Of a stretch of DNA of 34,989 nucleotides, positions 1,044-25,115 are shown piece after piece. The notes under the pieces were generated by a model. That model was not told where the DNA came from. It did not search any database and saw nothing but the letters and a program-made list of their open reading frames with translations. The position numbers and the translations under genes are program-made. Within the stretch, counting starts at the first letter, position 1. The number at the start of each line of letters is the position of its first letter. Source of the DNA: Solirubrobacterales bacterium (GTDB taxonomy: Bacteria; Actinomycetota; Thermoleophilia; Solirubrobacterales; Solirubrobacteraceae); assembly GCA_025964355.1 (NCBI GenBank), contig JAOPZB010000126.1, positions 1 to 34,989 on the forward strand. The letters run 5' to 3'.

Positions 1044-1672
1044 GCCCGATGCTCGACGCTGATGACGCGGCCCGCCTGCAGGACTGCGTGGCCGGCGGCG
1101 GTGTCGCCGTCTTTCCCACCGACACCGTCTACGGCGTCTGCTGCGACCCCGACAGCGAGCCGGCGGCGCGGCGCCTCTACGACCTCAAGGGCCGACCTCC
1201 GTCACGTGCCTGCGCGGTCATGTTCTTCGCGCTCGAGCCCGCGCTGCAGACGCTCGGCGAGCTTCCCGACAGCGAGCGCAGGGCACTGACCGCGCTTCTT
1301 CCAGGGCCCGTGACCCTGCTGCTGGCAAACAGGGGGCTCCACTTCACGGCGGCCTGCCGGACGGATCCGCTGACCCTCGGCCTGCGGGTGCCGCGCCTGC
1401 CCGGGTCGCTGCACGCCCTGTCCGCGATCACCCGTCCGGTGATGCAGTCGAGCGCCAACCGGTCCGGTGAGCCCGACGCACGCTCGCTCGACGAGGTGCC
1501 GTCGAGCCTGCTCGACAGCGTGGACCTCGTGCTGGACGGGGGCGAGCTTCCCGGCAGGGCCTCCACCGTGATCGATCTGCGCGACTACGCGCTGCAACGC
1601 CGCTGGCACGTCCTGCGCGAGGGAGCGCTCGCGAGCGACGACGTGCGTGAACTGCTCGCGTCCTCAGGCTGA
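1040..1672 (+). CDS. tsaC: L-threonylcarbamoyladenylate synthase (TsaC/Sua5/YrdC family)
   Basis: 210 residues, the length of a single YrdC domain without the Sua5 C-terminal extension. The enzyme makes threonylcarbamoyl-AMP from threonine, bicarbonate and ATP for the t6A37 modification of ANN-decoding tRNAs. Family signatures are [16 protein letters not shown] near the N-terminus, the basic [14 protein letters not shown] nucleotide-binding segment, and [13 protein letters not shown] in the C-terminal half. ATG at 1040 overlaps the prmC stop by ATGA and follows GGGGAACGGCG. The 3' end runs almost directly into the glyA promoter and ZTP riboswitch, so the upstream operon probably ends here, although no clear terminator is visible. 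Confidence 0.92.
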
Positions 1673-1693
1673 GGGACGGGGGTCCCTTGCTGG

Positions 1694-1702
1694 TGCTAGC
1701 CT
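1694..1702 (+). promoter_or_regulatory. Extended -10 promoter of glyA
   Basis: TGC followed by TAGCCT forms an extended -10 element. It ends seven bases before the first paired base of the ZTP aptamer at about 1709-1710, where transcription should start. No good -35 is visible. The ahcY promoter has the same form (TGC-TACCTT) placed identically before its riboswitch, which supports both calls. Confidence 0.6.
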
Positions 1703-1708
1703 CGTGGC

Positions 1709-1784
1709 AGCTGCCGCGACTGGCGCTGTGAGGTGGAATCGACCACCGGGAAGCGGTCAGCCGAACCGCCGCGCGCCTGGGCAC
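1709..1784 (+). promoter_or_regulatory. ZTP/ZMP riboswitch (pfl motif) upstream of glyA
   Basis: The conserved pfl core is present in order. P1 is GCTGCCGC (1710-1717) pairing with GCGGTCAGC (1753-1761, one bulged T). Inside it lie GACTGGCG and the hairpin GGTGG-AATCGA-CCACC (1732-1747), followed by GGGAAGCG. The 3' domain ends with CGCCTGGGCA (to about 1783). The motif senses ZTP or ZMP, which accumulate when 10-formyl-tetrahydrofolate is short, and switches on one-carbon genes such as glyA. No intrinsic terminator lies between the aptamer and the AGGAG at 1800-1804, so control of translation start is more likely than termination; that is inference. Confidence 0.94.
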
Positions 1785-1811
1785 AAAGTCGCCGATCTCA
1801 AGGAGAGCGCC

Positions 1812-3110
1812 GTGAGTGAGCCCAGCCCCGATTACTTCAACCGGCCCCTGGCCGAGGTAGATCCCGAGATCGCCGAGGTGCTGCGTGGCGAGCTCGAGCG
1901 CGAGCAGCGCACGCTCGAGATGATCGCCTCGGAGAACTTCGTCCCGCTCGCCGTGCTCGAATGCCAGGGCTCGGTGCTGACGAACAAGTACGCCGAGGGG
2001 TATCCCGGCCGCCGCTACTACGGAGGCTGCGAGTGGGTCGACATCTCCGAGCAGCTCGCCATCGACCGTGCCAAGGCGCTGTTCGGCGCCGAGCACGCCA
2101 ACGTCCAGCCGCATTCCGGCTCGCAGGCGAACGCCGCCGTCTACCACGCCCTGCTCGAGCCCGGCGACACGATCATGGGCCTCTCCCTCGCACATGGCGG
2201 CCACCTCACGCACGGCATGCGCCTCAACGTCTCCGGCCGCCTTTACGAGATCGCCGCCTATGAGGTCGATCGCGAGACGAGCCTCATCGACATGGACGAG
2301 GTCGCACGCATCGCTCGCGAGCGCCGCCCGAGGCTGCTGCTGGCGGGCTGGTCGGCGTATCCGCGCGAGCTCGACTTCGCTCGCTTTCGCCAGATCGCCG
2401 ACGAGGTCGGCGCGCTGCTGATGGTCGACATGGCCCACTTCGCCGGCCTCGTGGCGGCGGGGCTGCACCCGAACCCGATCGACTACGGCGCCGACGTCGT
2501 CACGACCACGACCCACAAGACTCTCGGCGGCCCGCGCGCCGGCGTGATCCTCTGCAAGCGGGAGTTCGCAAAGAAGATCGACTCCGCCGTGTTCCCCGGC
2601 CAGCAGGGTGGCCCGCTCGAGCACGTGATCGCGGCCAAGGCCGTGGCGTTCAGGCTCGCGGCGAGCGAGCTGTTCGCCGAGCGCCAGCAGCGCACCGTCG
2701 ACGGCGCCCGCGCGCTGGCCGCCGAGCTGATGCAGGCCGGCCACGGCGTGAACGTCCTGACCGGCGGCACCGATGTCCACCTCGTGCTCGTCGACCTGCG
2801 TGACACCGGCCCGACACTCACCGGCAAGCAGGCCGAGGACCGCCTGGCCGAGATCCAGATCACGGTCAACCGCAACGCGGTCCCGTTCGACCCGCGGCCG
2901 CCGATGGAAGCCTCGGGGCTGCGGATCGGAACGCCGGCCCTCGCCACGCGCGGCCTGCAGGGCGAGGACTTCAGCGAGGTCGGGCGGATACTCGCGATCG
3001 CGCTCACACCCGAGTACGAATCTCGCGCCGGCGAGCTGGCCGAGCGCGTCGCGGCGCTCGTCGATCACTACCCCCTCTACGAGACGCTCGCGAGCCCGGC
3101 GGCGGCCTAG
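1812..3110 (+). CDS. glyA: Serine hydroxymethyltransferase
   Basis: 432 residues, normal for bacterial SHMT. This PLP enzyme converts serine plus tetrahydrofolate to glycine plus 5,10-methylene-THF. The PLP lysine is K236 in [14 protein letters not shown]. Other hallmarks are the N-terminal [25 protein letters not shown], the [13 protein letters not shown] aspartate strand and the C-terminal [17 protein letters not shown] at 1812 is chosen because AGGAGA lies 6-7 bases upstream, the residues before it are riboswitch sequence, and [19 protein letters not shown] is a normal N-terminus. The gene stands under a ZTP riboswitch, so it should be induced when formylated folate is short. wecA follows 54 bases downstream. 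Confidence 0.97.
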
Positions 3111-9443: not shown

Positions 9444-10364
9444 ATGGCGGATAAGATCGTCGGCTTGTCAACCGCCGTTTCGATCGACACGCGGGGCCCC
9501 GCAGCGCCCGCCGCTGCGGCGATGGCGGCGCTGCCGCGGCCCAGTGTCCGCAGCCGCTGGTGGGTCGAGGCGCTCACGATCGCATGGCTGTGCTGGCTGT
9601 ATGACCTGGTGACCAACCTCGCGCCGCTGCGCCTGGCGCCGGCCCTCGCCCACGCCACGGGCGTCCTGCGCGTCGAGCAGACGCTCCACCTCGCGCCCGA
9701 GCTCGGGCTGGACCGCTGGCTGGCCGGCCACCATGCGATCGCGCTCGCGGTCTCCGACTACTACGACAACGCCCACTTCGTCGTGACGCTCGGGCTGCTC
9801 GGCTGGCTGTGGTGGCGGCGCGCGGACCTCTACAGGCCGCTGCGCAACATGCTCGTCGCCACGAACCTGCTCGCGTTCGCGGTCTTCTGGCTCTATCCAG
9901 TGGCTCCGCCGCGGATGCTCGGCGGCTTCACCGATGTCGTAGCCTCGACGCATGCGTTCGGCTCCTGGCATAGCGGCGCGCTTGCCTCACACGCCGACGA
10001 GCTGGCGGCCATGCCATCGCTGCACATCGCCTGGGCGGCATGGTGCACGCTCGTGCTCTGGCGCCTGTCCACGCGGCGTTCGGTGCGCGCGGCCGCCGTC
10101 CTCTACCCCTGTGTGACGGCCTTCGCCGTGCTGGCCACCGGCAACCACTTCGTGCTCGACATACTCGCCGGGCTCGCGACGATGGCGCTGGCGATGGTCT
10201 GCGTGCGCGCCGGGGGGAGCCTGCGGCGGTCGGGCGCGATCGGGCTGCGGCGAGCCGCCCGCGGGACCGCGGCGAGGCTAGGCGAGCGAGCGCTGCGGAA
10301 AAGCCGCTGGCCCGCGTACCGCATGTCACAAACTTGTTACGAAGTCCAGGACCGGGTAGACTAG
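9444..10364 (+). CDS. PAP2-superfamily membrane phosphatase/phosphotransferase (inositolphosphotransferase-like)
   Basis: 306 residues, about six membrane helices. The phosphatase-like catalytic motifs are AMPSLHIAWA (H194) and GNHFVLDILAG (H235, D239), in the arrangement of the PAP2_3/Aur1-like subgroup, whose members move phospho-alcohol head groups or hydrolyse polyprenyl or lipid phosphates. The exact substrate is unknown; in this neighbourhood a polyprenyl phosphate or phosphoinositol lipid is plausible. ATG 9444 gives the longest form. TAAGAT at 9452-9457 looks like a -10 that would start RNA at about 9464, so a leaderless TTG start at 9465 (LSTAVSID...) is a serious alternative. The last codons contain the -10 of the atp operon. 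Confidence 0.83.
   Translation: MADKIVGLSTAVSIDTRGPAAPAAAAMAALPRPSVRSRWWVEALTIAWLCWLYDLVTNLAPLRLAPALAHATGVLRVEQTLHLAPELGLDRWLAGHHAIALAVSDYYDNAHFVVTLGLLGWLWWRRADLYRPLRNMLVATNLLAFAVFWLYPVAPPRMLGGFTDVVASTHAFGSWHSGALASHADELAAMPSLHIAWAAWCTLVLWRLSTRRSVRAAAVLYPCVTAFAVLATGNHFVLDILAGLATMALAMVCVRAGGSLRRSGAIGLRRAARGTAARLGERALRKSRWPAYRMSQTCYEVQDRVD
10334..10362 (+). promoter_or_regulatory. Promoter of the ATP synthase operon
   Basis: TTGTTA (10334-10339), a 17-base spacer and TAGACT (10357-10362) form one of the best sigma-70-like promoters in the window. The -10 overlaps the last codons and stop of the PAP2 gene. Transcription should start near 10369. Confidence 0.7.
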
Positions 10365-10368
10365 CGCC

Positions 10369-10732
10369 GCCGCCGCAGACGGCTAGGGGACACTTCGTCG
10401 CAGACTGCGCGTGGACGTTTCCGTCTGTAGGGTGGCGCGTACCGACATGCGAGATCTTGACGCCAACGAGGACGATGCACGCCTGCCCGCAGCAGACACG
10501 GGGGGCTCCGCCGACGCCCCCGGTGGTCCGGTTGTCCGCCGCCTGCGGGCGGTCGCGCGCACGCGACGCTTCGCCTGCCAGCGCGTGGGGGTGGCGCGCG
10601 CACTGCCGCGTGCCAGAGCTACACGGCGGCGCTGTCCCGACGGACGGCCACTCGCCATGCTGACGACGACGCCGCAGCGCAGGCGTCTGTGGACCCCGTG
10701 CCACGGACGGCCGCCCGGACCCGCAAGCTGAC
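10369..10732 (+). promoter_or_regulatory. Long structured leader of the atp operon
   Basis: No convincing gene occupies these 364 bases: open frames here are Arg-rich and lack any family signal. Several stems can form: CAGACGG/CCGTCTG (10376-10382 with 10421-10427) enclosing CGTC/GACG (10396-10399 with 10414-10417) and GCA/TGC; GGGGGC/GCCCCC (10501-10506 with 10516-10521); and CCGCC-TGCG-GGCGG (10539-10552). I recognise no riboswitch consensus. No Shine-Dalgarno precedes the first gene of the operon. Confidence 0.45.
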
Positions 10733-11122
10733 GTGTTCTTCCTGCGCTATCTCGACGTGTGCCTGGTGCTCGCGACGGGCCCGTTCGTGCTCATCGGCGG
10801 AATGCCGGCGTTCGGCTACCTCGTCGGCGCGACCGCCTGGCTGCTGACGCGACTCGGCACCGCCTACGTATACGAGCGGGCGCGGCGGATCGCTGACCCG
10901 AAGGTGAAAGCCGGCCTGCAGGTCGCCGCGATGATGGGTCGTGTCTGGATCGTGGCGCTCGCCGTGATCCTCGCCAAGTACGCCGGCAGCAAGAGCGACG
11001 GCATCATGGCGGCCGCGGTCGTGCTCGCGGCGTTCACCGTGTACTTCGCAATGTCGTTCGTGATGCGCCCCGGAGCGCTGCCCGGTGGTTCCCGTGCGCA
11101 CGGACGACCGAGCGCATCGTGA
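10733..11122 (+). CDS. atpI: Small membrane protein at the head of the atp operon (AtpI-like)
   Basis: 129 residues with three or four hydrophobic segments (about 4-40, 60-83, 89-110). Position directly before atpB and this size fit AtpI, the small protein that helps assemble the c-ring, and gene order in actinobacteria supports it. Sequence similarity to characterised AtpI is too weak for me to see by eye, so the name rests mainly on context. GTG 10733 is the first start in frame after the upstream stop, and no ribosome binding site is evident. Its TGA overlaps the GTG of atpB (GTGA), indicating coupled translation. The last 15 residues are polar. Confidence 0.65.
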   Translation: MFFLRYLDVCLVLATGPFVLIGGMPAFGYLVGATAWLLTRLGTAYVYERARRIADPKVKAGLQVAAMMGRVWIVALAVILAKYAGSKSDGIMAAAVVLAAFTVYFAMSFVMRPGALPGGSRAHGRPSAS

Positions 11123-12042
11123 ACGCCACCACGCACGACGCCCGCCCGAAGCGCAGCGTCAAACGCACCCTGCTGATCCTGTTCGGCATCTACCTCGCGG
11201 GCCTGATCGCGCTGATCGCCATCTACGGCTTCAAGGGCCAGCGCAACAACATCTACAAGCCCCAGGACGAGTTCAAACTCGAAAACTGGGTGAACCTCGG
11301 GATCTTCTCGATCAACAAGGCCGTCGTCTACCTGTTCCTGGCCGCCGCTCTGACCTGCGTGAGCATGATCTACATCGCGCGGCGGATGCAGCAGCGCCCG
11401 AACAAGGTGCAGACCGCAGTCGAGCTGCTGTTTCAGCTTATGCGCGACAACATCACCGGCAGCTCCATGGACAGCAGGACGGCCGCCAGGTGGTTTCCGT
11501 TCATCGGCACGCTGTTCCTGTTCATCCTCTTCTCCAACCTCGTCGGCTACATACCGCTGCCGACCAACACGTCCGCGAAGATCGACGTGCTCGGCGTGCA
11601 CATCCCGTCGTTCTCGATCTACGCCGCCACCGCCAACCTCTCGGTGCCGCTTGCCCTGGCGCTTGTCGTATTCGTGTCCTACACCGTGGAAGGCGTGCGC
11701 GCCAAGGGTCCGATCGGCTATCTCAAGGGGCTGATCCCCGGTGGAGTGAAGGGCGCGATAACGGTCCCGCTCTTCTTTCTCGAGCTGCTGTCGAACGTCA
11801 TGCGCGTGCTCTCGCTGACGATTCGTCTGTTCGCCAATATCCTGGCGGGCCATCTCATCATCCTGTTCATGGCGGGGGCGCTGGCCGTGATCCTCGGCGC
11901 CACCTGGCTCGGCTGGTTCACTCTCCCGTTCGGCATCCTGCTGTACGCATTCGAGATCGGCCTGGTCGCCGCCCTGCAGGCGTTCATCTTCGCCCTGCTC
12001 ACCGCTATCTACCTCGGCGGCGCCGTCGCCGAGGAACACTAA
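11119..12042 (+). CDS. atpB: F1Fo ATP synthase subunit a
   Basis: 307-residue membrane subunit that forms the two proton half-channels against the c-ring. The essential arginine is R236 in LTIRLFANILAGHLI; the preceding ELLSNVMRVLS is also conserved. Five or six membrane helices are visible, the first at about 15-35. GTG 11119 overlaps the stop of the preceding gene by four bases. The stop is followed by AAAAGGAGC, the strong ribosome binding site of atpE. Confidence 0.97.
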   Translation: MNATTHDARPKRSVKRTLLILFGIYLAGLIALIAIYGFKGQRNNIYKPQDEFKLENWVNLGIFSINKAVVYLFLAAALTCVSMIYIARRMQQRPNKVQTAVELLFQLMRDNITGSSMDSRTAARWFPFIGTLFLFILFSNLVGYIPLPTNTSAKIDVLGVHIPSFSIYAATANLSVPLALALVVFVSYTVEGVRAKGPIGYLKGLIPGGVKGAITVPLFFLELLSNVMRVLSLTIRLFANILAGHLIILFMAGALAVILGATWLGWFTLPFGILLYAFEIGLVAALQAFIFALLTAIYLGGAVAEEH

Positions 12043-23549: not shown

Positions 23550-23555
23550 CTTGGG

Positions 23556-25115
<1,560 letters not shown>

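What the first reader, a model, noticed from the sequence alone, without database searches (positions are those of the whole stretch)
10334..10732. atp operon: strong promoter inside the PAP2 stop region and a structured leader of about 364 nt
TTGTTA-17-TAGACT overlaps the last codons of the preceding gene. The RNA then runs 364 bases before the first operon gene, with at least three stable stems and no convincing reading frame. Long leaders before atp operons can carry control by energy state; nothing here matches a known element.
Basis: partly seen in the sequence, partly recalled or inferred. Interest (0 to 1): 0.52.

Follow-up and report, generated by a model that had tools for sequence, protein, structure and literature searches.

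The report
ATP synthase operon leader with uORF
In soil bacteria of the Solirubrobacterales, the stretch before the ATP synthase genes holds a very conserved promoter, a short folded RNA start and a small hidden reading frame that runs right up to the first gene, which together may tune how much ATP synthase is made.

Summary
The promoter is real: TTGTTA-17-TAGACT (10334-10362) sits in a 23-bp block, TGTCACAAACTTGTTACGAAGTC, found upstream of atp in 64 of 110 related genomes, 0 on the other strand, and once in its own genome. It contains two 8-bp direct repeats 11 bp apart, the geometry of OmpR/PhoB-type (MtrA-like) sites. The "364-nt structured leader" is not one thing. Only its first ~75 nt (10363-10436) fold better than shuffles: own z -1.72, mean -1.46 in 36 leaders. 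The whole stretch does not (z +0.68). The RNA's first bases pair with CCGUCUGUAGGGUGG just before a start codon (P1), enclosing one or two hairpins. In all 9 genomes of the clade that carry it, it stays in frame to a TGA next to the atpI-like start, with a strong synonymous bias at both ends. Rfam has no match. Best reading: a response-regulator-type promoter, a short folded leader over the initiation region and a translationally coupled uORF. That P1 gates translation is inferred. Main rival: TAGGGT as the -10 of a second promoter.

The parts
9444..10364 (+). Upstream gene, PAP2-superfamily membrane phosphatase; its last codons overlap the promoter
   Evidence: PF14378 E 9e-47; ORF
10324..10346 (+). 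Conserved block TGTCACAAACTTGTTACGAAGTC: direct repeats GTCACAAA and GTTACGAA, 11 bp apart, second one overlapping the -35 (putative response-regulator site)
   Evidence: 64 of 110 loci, 0 controls; single copy in own genome
10334..10339 (+). -35 hexamer TTGTTA
   Evidence: position
10357..10362 (+). -10 hexamer TAGACT; start of RNA inferred at about 10368-10370
   Evidence: TAnnnT at 17-19 bp in 61 of 64 loci; start not mapped
10370..10382 (+). P1 5' strand (CCGCCGCAGACGG), the first bases of the inferred RNA
   Evidence: folds, alignment A2, duplex tests
10421..10435 (+). P1 3' strand CCGTCTGTAGGGTGG, containing the invariant TAGGGT (10428-10433)
   Evidence: TCTGTAGGGTGGC once at 0 mismatches in own genome
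10383..10420 (+). Hairpins P2/P3 enclosed by P1; degenerate in this genome, where about 10 nt are missing, and terminator-like in relatives
   Evidence: A2; terminator scan 19 of 64 leaders, not this one
10447..10731 (+). uORF, 94 codons (MRDLDANEDD...RRRLWTPCHGRPPGPAS*), stop TGA one base before GTG 10733
   Evidence: no Pfam or NCBIfam match (queried from 10450)
10733..11122 (+). First operon gene, AtpI-like membrane protein by position and length; no Pfam match above cut-off
11119..12042 (+). atpB, F0 subunit a
   Evidence: PF00119 E 5.5e-50, TIGR01131

Best explanation
The gap is a compound control region of the atp operon. (1) A strong housekeeping promoter whose -35 is embedded in two 8-bp direct repeats 11 bp apart, where an OmpR/PhoB-family response regulator most likely binds and activates or tunes it. 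(2) A short 5' leader of about 65-75 nt whose first bases pair with CCGUCUGUAGGGUGG 11-13 nt before the first start codon (P1), enclosing one or two hairpins; when P1 forms it should cover the ribosome landing site. (3) A uORF of 94 codons with a conserved acidic start, an Arg-rich variable body and a conserved end, whose TGA lies one base before the atpI-like GTG, which has no visible Shine-Dalgarno sequence; atpI is then translated by termination-reinitiation. Shown by sequence: conservation of the promoter block, the frame and coding signature of the uORF, excess folding of the first ~75 nt. Inferred: who binds the repeats, that P1 gates initiation, that coupling occurs.
For: Promoter block in 64 of 110 genomes against 0 and 0 in two controls, -10 in register in 61 of 64; unique in own genome. 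Repeat geometry equals the C. glutamicum MtrA consensus, 8-bp repeats with a 3-bp linker (PMC3353115, passages). Leader folding: mean z -1.46 over 36 loci, 34 of 36 negative, own -1.72; equal-length flanks +0.41 downstream and -0.26 upstream. P1: RNAalifold proposes it unasked together with P2; 98% of cells paired, one double change, in L008. Own leader pairs with own S better than with S of other lineages: 61 of 20000 permutations reach it for 24 lineages, 109 of 20000 with one per genus, n = 9. uORF: in frame to the stop beside atpI in 9 of 9 genomes with lengths of 30-101 aa. Single-difference codon pairs, synonymous/nonsynonymous, in its frame 96/69 at the start and 39/24 at the end, against 5/118 and 20/123, 16/48 and 8/56 in the other frames.
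Against: No transcript data; the start is inferred. P1 support is uneven: without L145 and L146 the swap test falls to 1367 of 20000; in the single-genome shuffle test the mean z is -0.73 with 13 of 38 below -1. Nearly all one-sided changes in P1 are transitions, which would keep pairing anyway. S as a Shine-Dalgarno sequence is poorly spaced (GGG lies 11-14 nt before AUG). No protein passes the MtrA model's cut-off in 61 genomes. Model R1 finds clear matches only in the clade it was built from. The middle of the uORF is barely conserved, so a protein function is doubtful.
Confidence: 0.5

Rival explanations
1. TAGGGT (10428-10433) is the -10 box of a second promoter that makes a nearly leaderless mRNA beginning a few bases before the uORF; the hairpin upstream ends or dampens transcripts from the first promoter.
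For: In the own genome GTAGGGT followed by ATG shows 9 of 19 matches at a spacing of 6-7 nt, the signature of leaderless -10 boxes (sequences). The hexamer is TAGGGT, TAGAGT, TAGTGT or TAGGCT in different genomes, so T, A and final T stay. Spacing to the start codon is narrow. Terminator-like hairpins just upstream in 19 of 64 leaders against 5.6 expected.
Against: Spacing here is 13 nt, not 6-7; no -35-like sequence at the right distance, the place being taken by a hairpin; letters flanking TAGGGT tend to match the upstream partner strand.
Confidence: 0.25
2. A transcription attenuator: the leader hairpin plus U-rich tail is an intrinsic terminator, and a factor or the coupled translation decides on read-through.
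For: 19 of 64 leaders carry a terminator-like hairpin against 5.6 expected, most about 65-92 nt after the start of the promoter block; genus g35 has runs of 4-6 T (L105, L106, L159).
Against: The window's own leader has none, nor have most other loci; no alternative antiterminator pairing was found.
Confidence: 0.12
3. The uORF is only the remnant of a gene between promoter and atpI: an AtpZ-like gene lies there in other genera, and in parts of this genus the same start codon opens atpI itself.
For: AtpZ-like two-helix proteins between the same promoter and atpI in L018, L021, L099, L108, L133, L139 (L018 hits PF09527 at E 3e-4, below cut-off). MPDLDAN and MSQIDATEDH open the AtpI-like protein in frame in L085 and L088.
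Against: A remnant would not keep its frame to the same stop in 9 of 9 genomes with different lengths, nor a synonymous bias at both ends.
Confidence: 0.1

Closest known systems
MtrA binding sites of Actinobacteria (OmpR-family response regulator)
   Same: Direct repeats of a GTnACA-type half-site, 8 bp with a 3-bp linker, next to or over the -35 (PMC3353115, PMC6265350, PMC13189361, passages read)
   Different: No MtrA above its model's cut-off in 61 relatives; the site is single-copy and atp-specific in its genome, whereas MtrA has a broad regulon
Pho box (PhoB/PhoP)
   Same: 11-bp direct repeats; my recollection of the E. coli phoA box is close (recalled, not from a call)
   Different: The genus's own candidate pho boxes before pstS read TTCACG-N5-TTCACA (11 of 13 loci), and none of the 13 has the atp block at 6 mismatches or fewer
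Bacterial uORFs that couple translation to an operon, e.g. the ilvBNC uORF of Corynebacterium (PMC10272879, listing only)
   Same: Short conserved ORF in an actinobacterial leader, abutting the first gene
   Different: Longer (up to 101 aa), acidic then Arg-rich; no run of regulatory codons identified
Three-way-junction riboswitches and leaders that cover the ribosome binding site
   Same: Closing stem whose 3' strand ends just before the start codon
   Different: No Rfam match, no conserved ligand-binding core seen; inner hairpins vary strongly
atp operon control in other Actinobacteria: Rex in Streptomyces avermitilis (PMC5355995), SigH in Corynebacterium glutamicum (PMC3917460); start of abstracts in search listing
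   Same: Regulation of the same operon at its promoter
   Different: Different sequence elements; the block here is not a Rex operator (Rex consensus recalled)

Membership tests
Housekeeping (sigma-70-type) promoter | -35 and TAnnnT -10 at 16-19 bp, conserved in relatives | tested here: met
   61 of 64 loci
Housekeeping (sigma-70-type) promoter | Mapped transcription start | not testable with these tools
   no RNA data
MtrA site | 8-bp direct repeat with 3-bp linker | tested here: met
   GTCACAAA-CTT-GTTACGAA, 10325-10343; consensus from PMC3353115
MtrA site | Genome encodes MtrA (NF040689 over cut-off) | tested here: not met
   0 of 61 genomes over the cut-off; best in own genome 216 bits against 300
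Pho box | Same half-site as before pstS of the same genus | tested here: not met
   pstS boxes are TTCAC-type in 11 of 13; atp-type block in 0 of 13
Known Rfam RNA family | Match at gathering score | tested here: not met
Structured cis-regulatory RNA | Folding beyond composition | tested here: met
   first ~75 nt only
Structured cis-regulatory RNA | Compensatory changes in the closing stem | tested here: inconclusive
   one double change in the clade; swap test 61 of 20000, but 1367 of 20000 without L145 and L146
Intrinsic terminator / attenuator | GC hairpin followed by U-run in this leader | tested here: not met
   own leader none; relatives 19 of 64
Coupled uORF | Conserved frame, stop next to the downstream start | tested here: met
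   9 of 9; coding signature
Coupled uORF | Translation and coupling shown | not testable with these tools
   needs ribosome profiling and reporters

The most novel reading that the evidence does not exclude
A lineage-specific regulatory RNA class controls ATP synthase: the extreme 5' end of the atp mRNA pairs with the bases just before the first start codon, a signal bound in the enclosed junction opens it, and a coupled acidic/Arg-rich uORF passes the decision to the whole operon, so that ATP synthase output is set by an RNA sensor in addition to a two-component promoter.
Probability: 0.2. Interest if true: 0.75.

Novelty: new member of a known kind. Interest (0 to 1): 0.48.

Why it matters
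ATP synthase operons are among the most expressed in bacteria, yet little is known of leader-level control of them. Here promoter, folded leader and uORF are conserved enough across an understudied soil lineage to be tested in cultured relatives (records of Solirubrobacter, Patulibacter and Paraconexibacter appear). If the promoter repeats bind a response regulator, ATP synthase would be under two-component control in this order. The case also shows that a 'structured leader' read from raw sequence was largely coding.

Tried and rejected
Whole 364-nt leader as one structured RNA: rejected, z +0.68. Rfam: gathering on the window, permissive on 10300-10800 (one chance match at E 4.1), gathering on eight relatives. 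Pho box: rejected by the pstS comparison. S as a repeated genomic element: rejected, a single exact copy. S as a Shine-Dalgarno sequence: possible by pairing, but the spacing is long. Second genomic copy of the leader in G020 (C7): it is the end of a contig and 119 bases are identical to the atp leader on C114, so an assembly break, not a paralogue. Programmed frameshift joining uORF and atpI: considered because of TGAC; the codon before it (AGC, ATC or GAC) is not a known slippery codon (recalled); left out. CM R1 across the family: beyond the seed clade the matches are weak and mostly off the atp locus, so not used as evidence of a wider class.

Literature: searches (leaders, RNA motifs, uORFs and atp operons) listed no description of this element. 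That is a statement about those searches only. Searches were for the response-regulator sites. No paper was read in full.

Full report
What the window is. The window is contig C194 of an incomplete genome; its nearest named relatives are Solirubrobacterales metagenome bins. Order here: PAP2-family gene (9444-10364), gap, an AtpI-like membrane protein (10733-11122, no Pfam match above cut-off), atpB (PF00119, 11119-12042), then further atp genes.

The promoter. I looked in 110 loci from 110 genomes (several are cut by contig ends) for the surrounding block TGTCACAAANTTGTTACNAAGT. It is there in 64 of 110 at 4 mismatches or fewer (48 at 2 or fewer), and in 0 of 110 on the other strand and 0 of 110 in reversed sequence; a TAnnnT follows at 17-19 bp in 61 of 64. 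In the genus it is in 18 of the 23 genomes looked at. It recurs in two loci of other families of the order, L026 and L029. In the own genome it occurs once. The conserved block reaches 10 bp upstream of the -35 and consists of GTCACAAA-CTT-GTTACGAA, two 8-bp direct repeats with a 3-bp linker. That is the geometry given for MtrA of C. glutamicum (PMC3353115, passages; compare PMC6265350, and PMC13189361). A model of true MtrA finds no protein over its cut-off in 61 relatives, though the own genome has 17 matches to related response regulators. The Pho-box alternative fails: before pstS the genus carries TTCACG-N5-TTCACA-type repeats in 11 of 13 loci and the atp-type block in 0 of 13.

The structured part. 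The stretch 10369-10740 as a whole is not more stable than its shuffles. Split up, the leader from about the start of the RNA to the conserved TCTGTAGGGTGGC (S) folds better than shuffles: mean z -1.46 in 36 loci, 34 of 36 below zero, 24 below -1, own leader -1.72; stretches of equal length gave +0.41 downstream and -0.26 upstream. The 36 are the loci in which S was recognised, not all 64. Folding single leaders shows the common shape: the first bases of the RNA (10370-10382) pair with 10421-10435 (P1), enclosing one or two hairpins. On nine clade members RNAalifold proposes P1 and P2 by itself, and 98% of P1 cells are paired with one true double change. Most one-sided changes are transitions that would keep pairing in any case. 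To test P1 beyond the clade I compared the pairing of each leader with its own S and with S of other lineages: 61 of 20000 permutations did as well for 24 lineages (74 in the rerun), 109 of 20000 with one locus per genus (n = 9), but 1367 of 20000 after removing L145 and L146. Against shuffled leaders the mean z is only -0.73, 31 of 38 below zero. So folding of the leader is well supported, and P1 in particular is likely but not proven. Terminator-like hairpins occur in 19 of 64 leaders against 5.6 expected, but not in this one, where about 10 nt of the hairpin region are missing.

The reading frame. An ATG at 10447 opens a frame of 94 codons that ends at TGA 10729-10731, one base before GTG 10733. 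Nine genomes of the genus have the same arrangement (L001-L009); in all nine the frame stays open to the stop beside the atpI-like start, with lengths of 30 to 101 aa; eight read TGACGTG and L008 TGAGATG. Among the other nine genus members with the promoter block, the first start after S is the atpI-like gene itself, in frame, in seven (L010, L020, L025, L030, L085, L086, L088), and a 12- or 14-codon ORF abutting or overlapping it in two (L011, L019). At the conserved ends, codon pairs with one difference are synonymous/nonsynonymous 96/69 (start, 11 sequences) and 39/24 (end, 5 sequences) in this frame, against 5/118, 20/123, 16/48 and 8/56 in the other frames. Pair counts are not independent events. 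The middle is hardly alignable: substitutions there show little codon-position bias. No Pfam or NCBIfam family matches.

Mechanism. Most likely: a response-regulator-type promoter makes an mRNA whose 5' end can fold over the region before the first start codon; ribosomes that get in translate the uORF and, stopping one base before GTG 10733, which has no visible Shine-Dalgarno sequence, restart on the atpI-like gene. The main rival takes TAGGGT as a -10 box: in this genome GTAGGGT stands 6-7 nt before an ATG in 9 of 19 matches, the mark of leaderless promoters, though here the spacing is 13 and no -35 is visible. The two readings can be separated by one 5'-end mapping experiment.

Novelty. Rfam has no such family, and the paper searches listed none. 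Structured leaders and coupled uORFs are known kinds; this is a new instance on an unusual target.

Noticed in passing
window 1706-1789 (+): ZMP/ZTP riboswitch (Rfam RF01750, 52.4 bits) at the start of a serine hydroxymethyltransferase ORF (1647-3110, PF00464); the annotated start must lie further downstream than the ORF's first GTG.
   Followed up: partly
window 23555-23627 (+): SAH riboswitch (RF01057, 49.1 bits) directly before an S-adenosylhomocysteine hydrolase gene (23646-25115, PF05221).
   Followed up: partly
L018, L021, L108, L133, L139: In genera with an AtpZ-like gene, the start codon after the leader lies 34-40 nt before the AtpZ ATG and always out of frame by +1, and its frame stays open over all or nearly all of AtpZ (in L018 and L021 ending on the ATGA of atpI): possible overlapping gene or coupling frame.
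   Followed up: no
own genome, 9 sites: GTAGGGT 6-7 nt before ATG: signature of leaderless promoters in this lineage.
   Followed up: partly
L232-L244, about 225-310 nt before the matched part of pstS: Conserved direct repeat TTCACGnnATGTTCACA, a candidate Pho box of the genus, in 11 of 13 loci.
   Followed up: no
L020 leader: The leader of this genus member carries an extra insert with a strong 11-bp hairpin (TGACGGTCTGG...TCAGACCGTCA).
   Followed up: no
window 10733-11122: The gene in the atpI position has no Pfam match above cut-off (best DUF6498, E 0.02), so its name rests on position only.
   Followed up: partly
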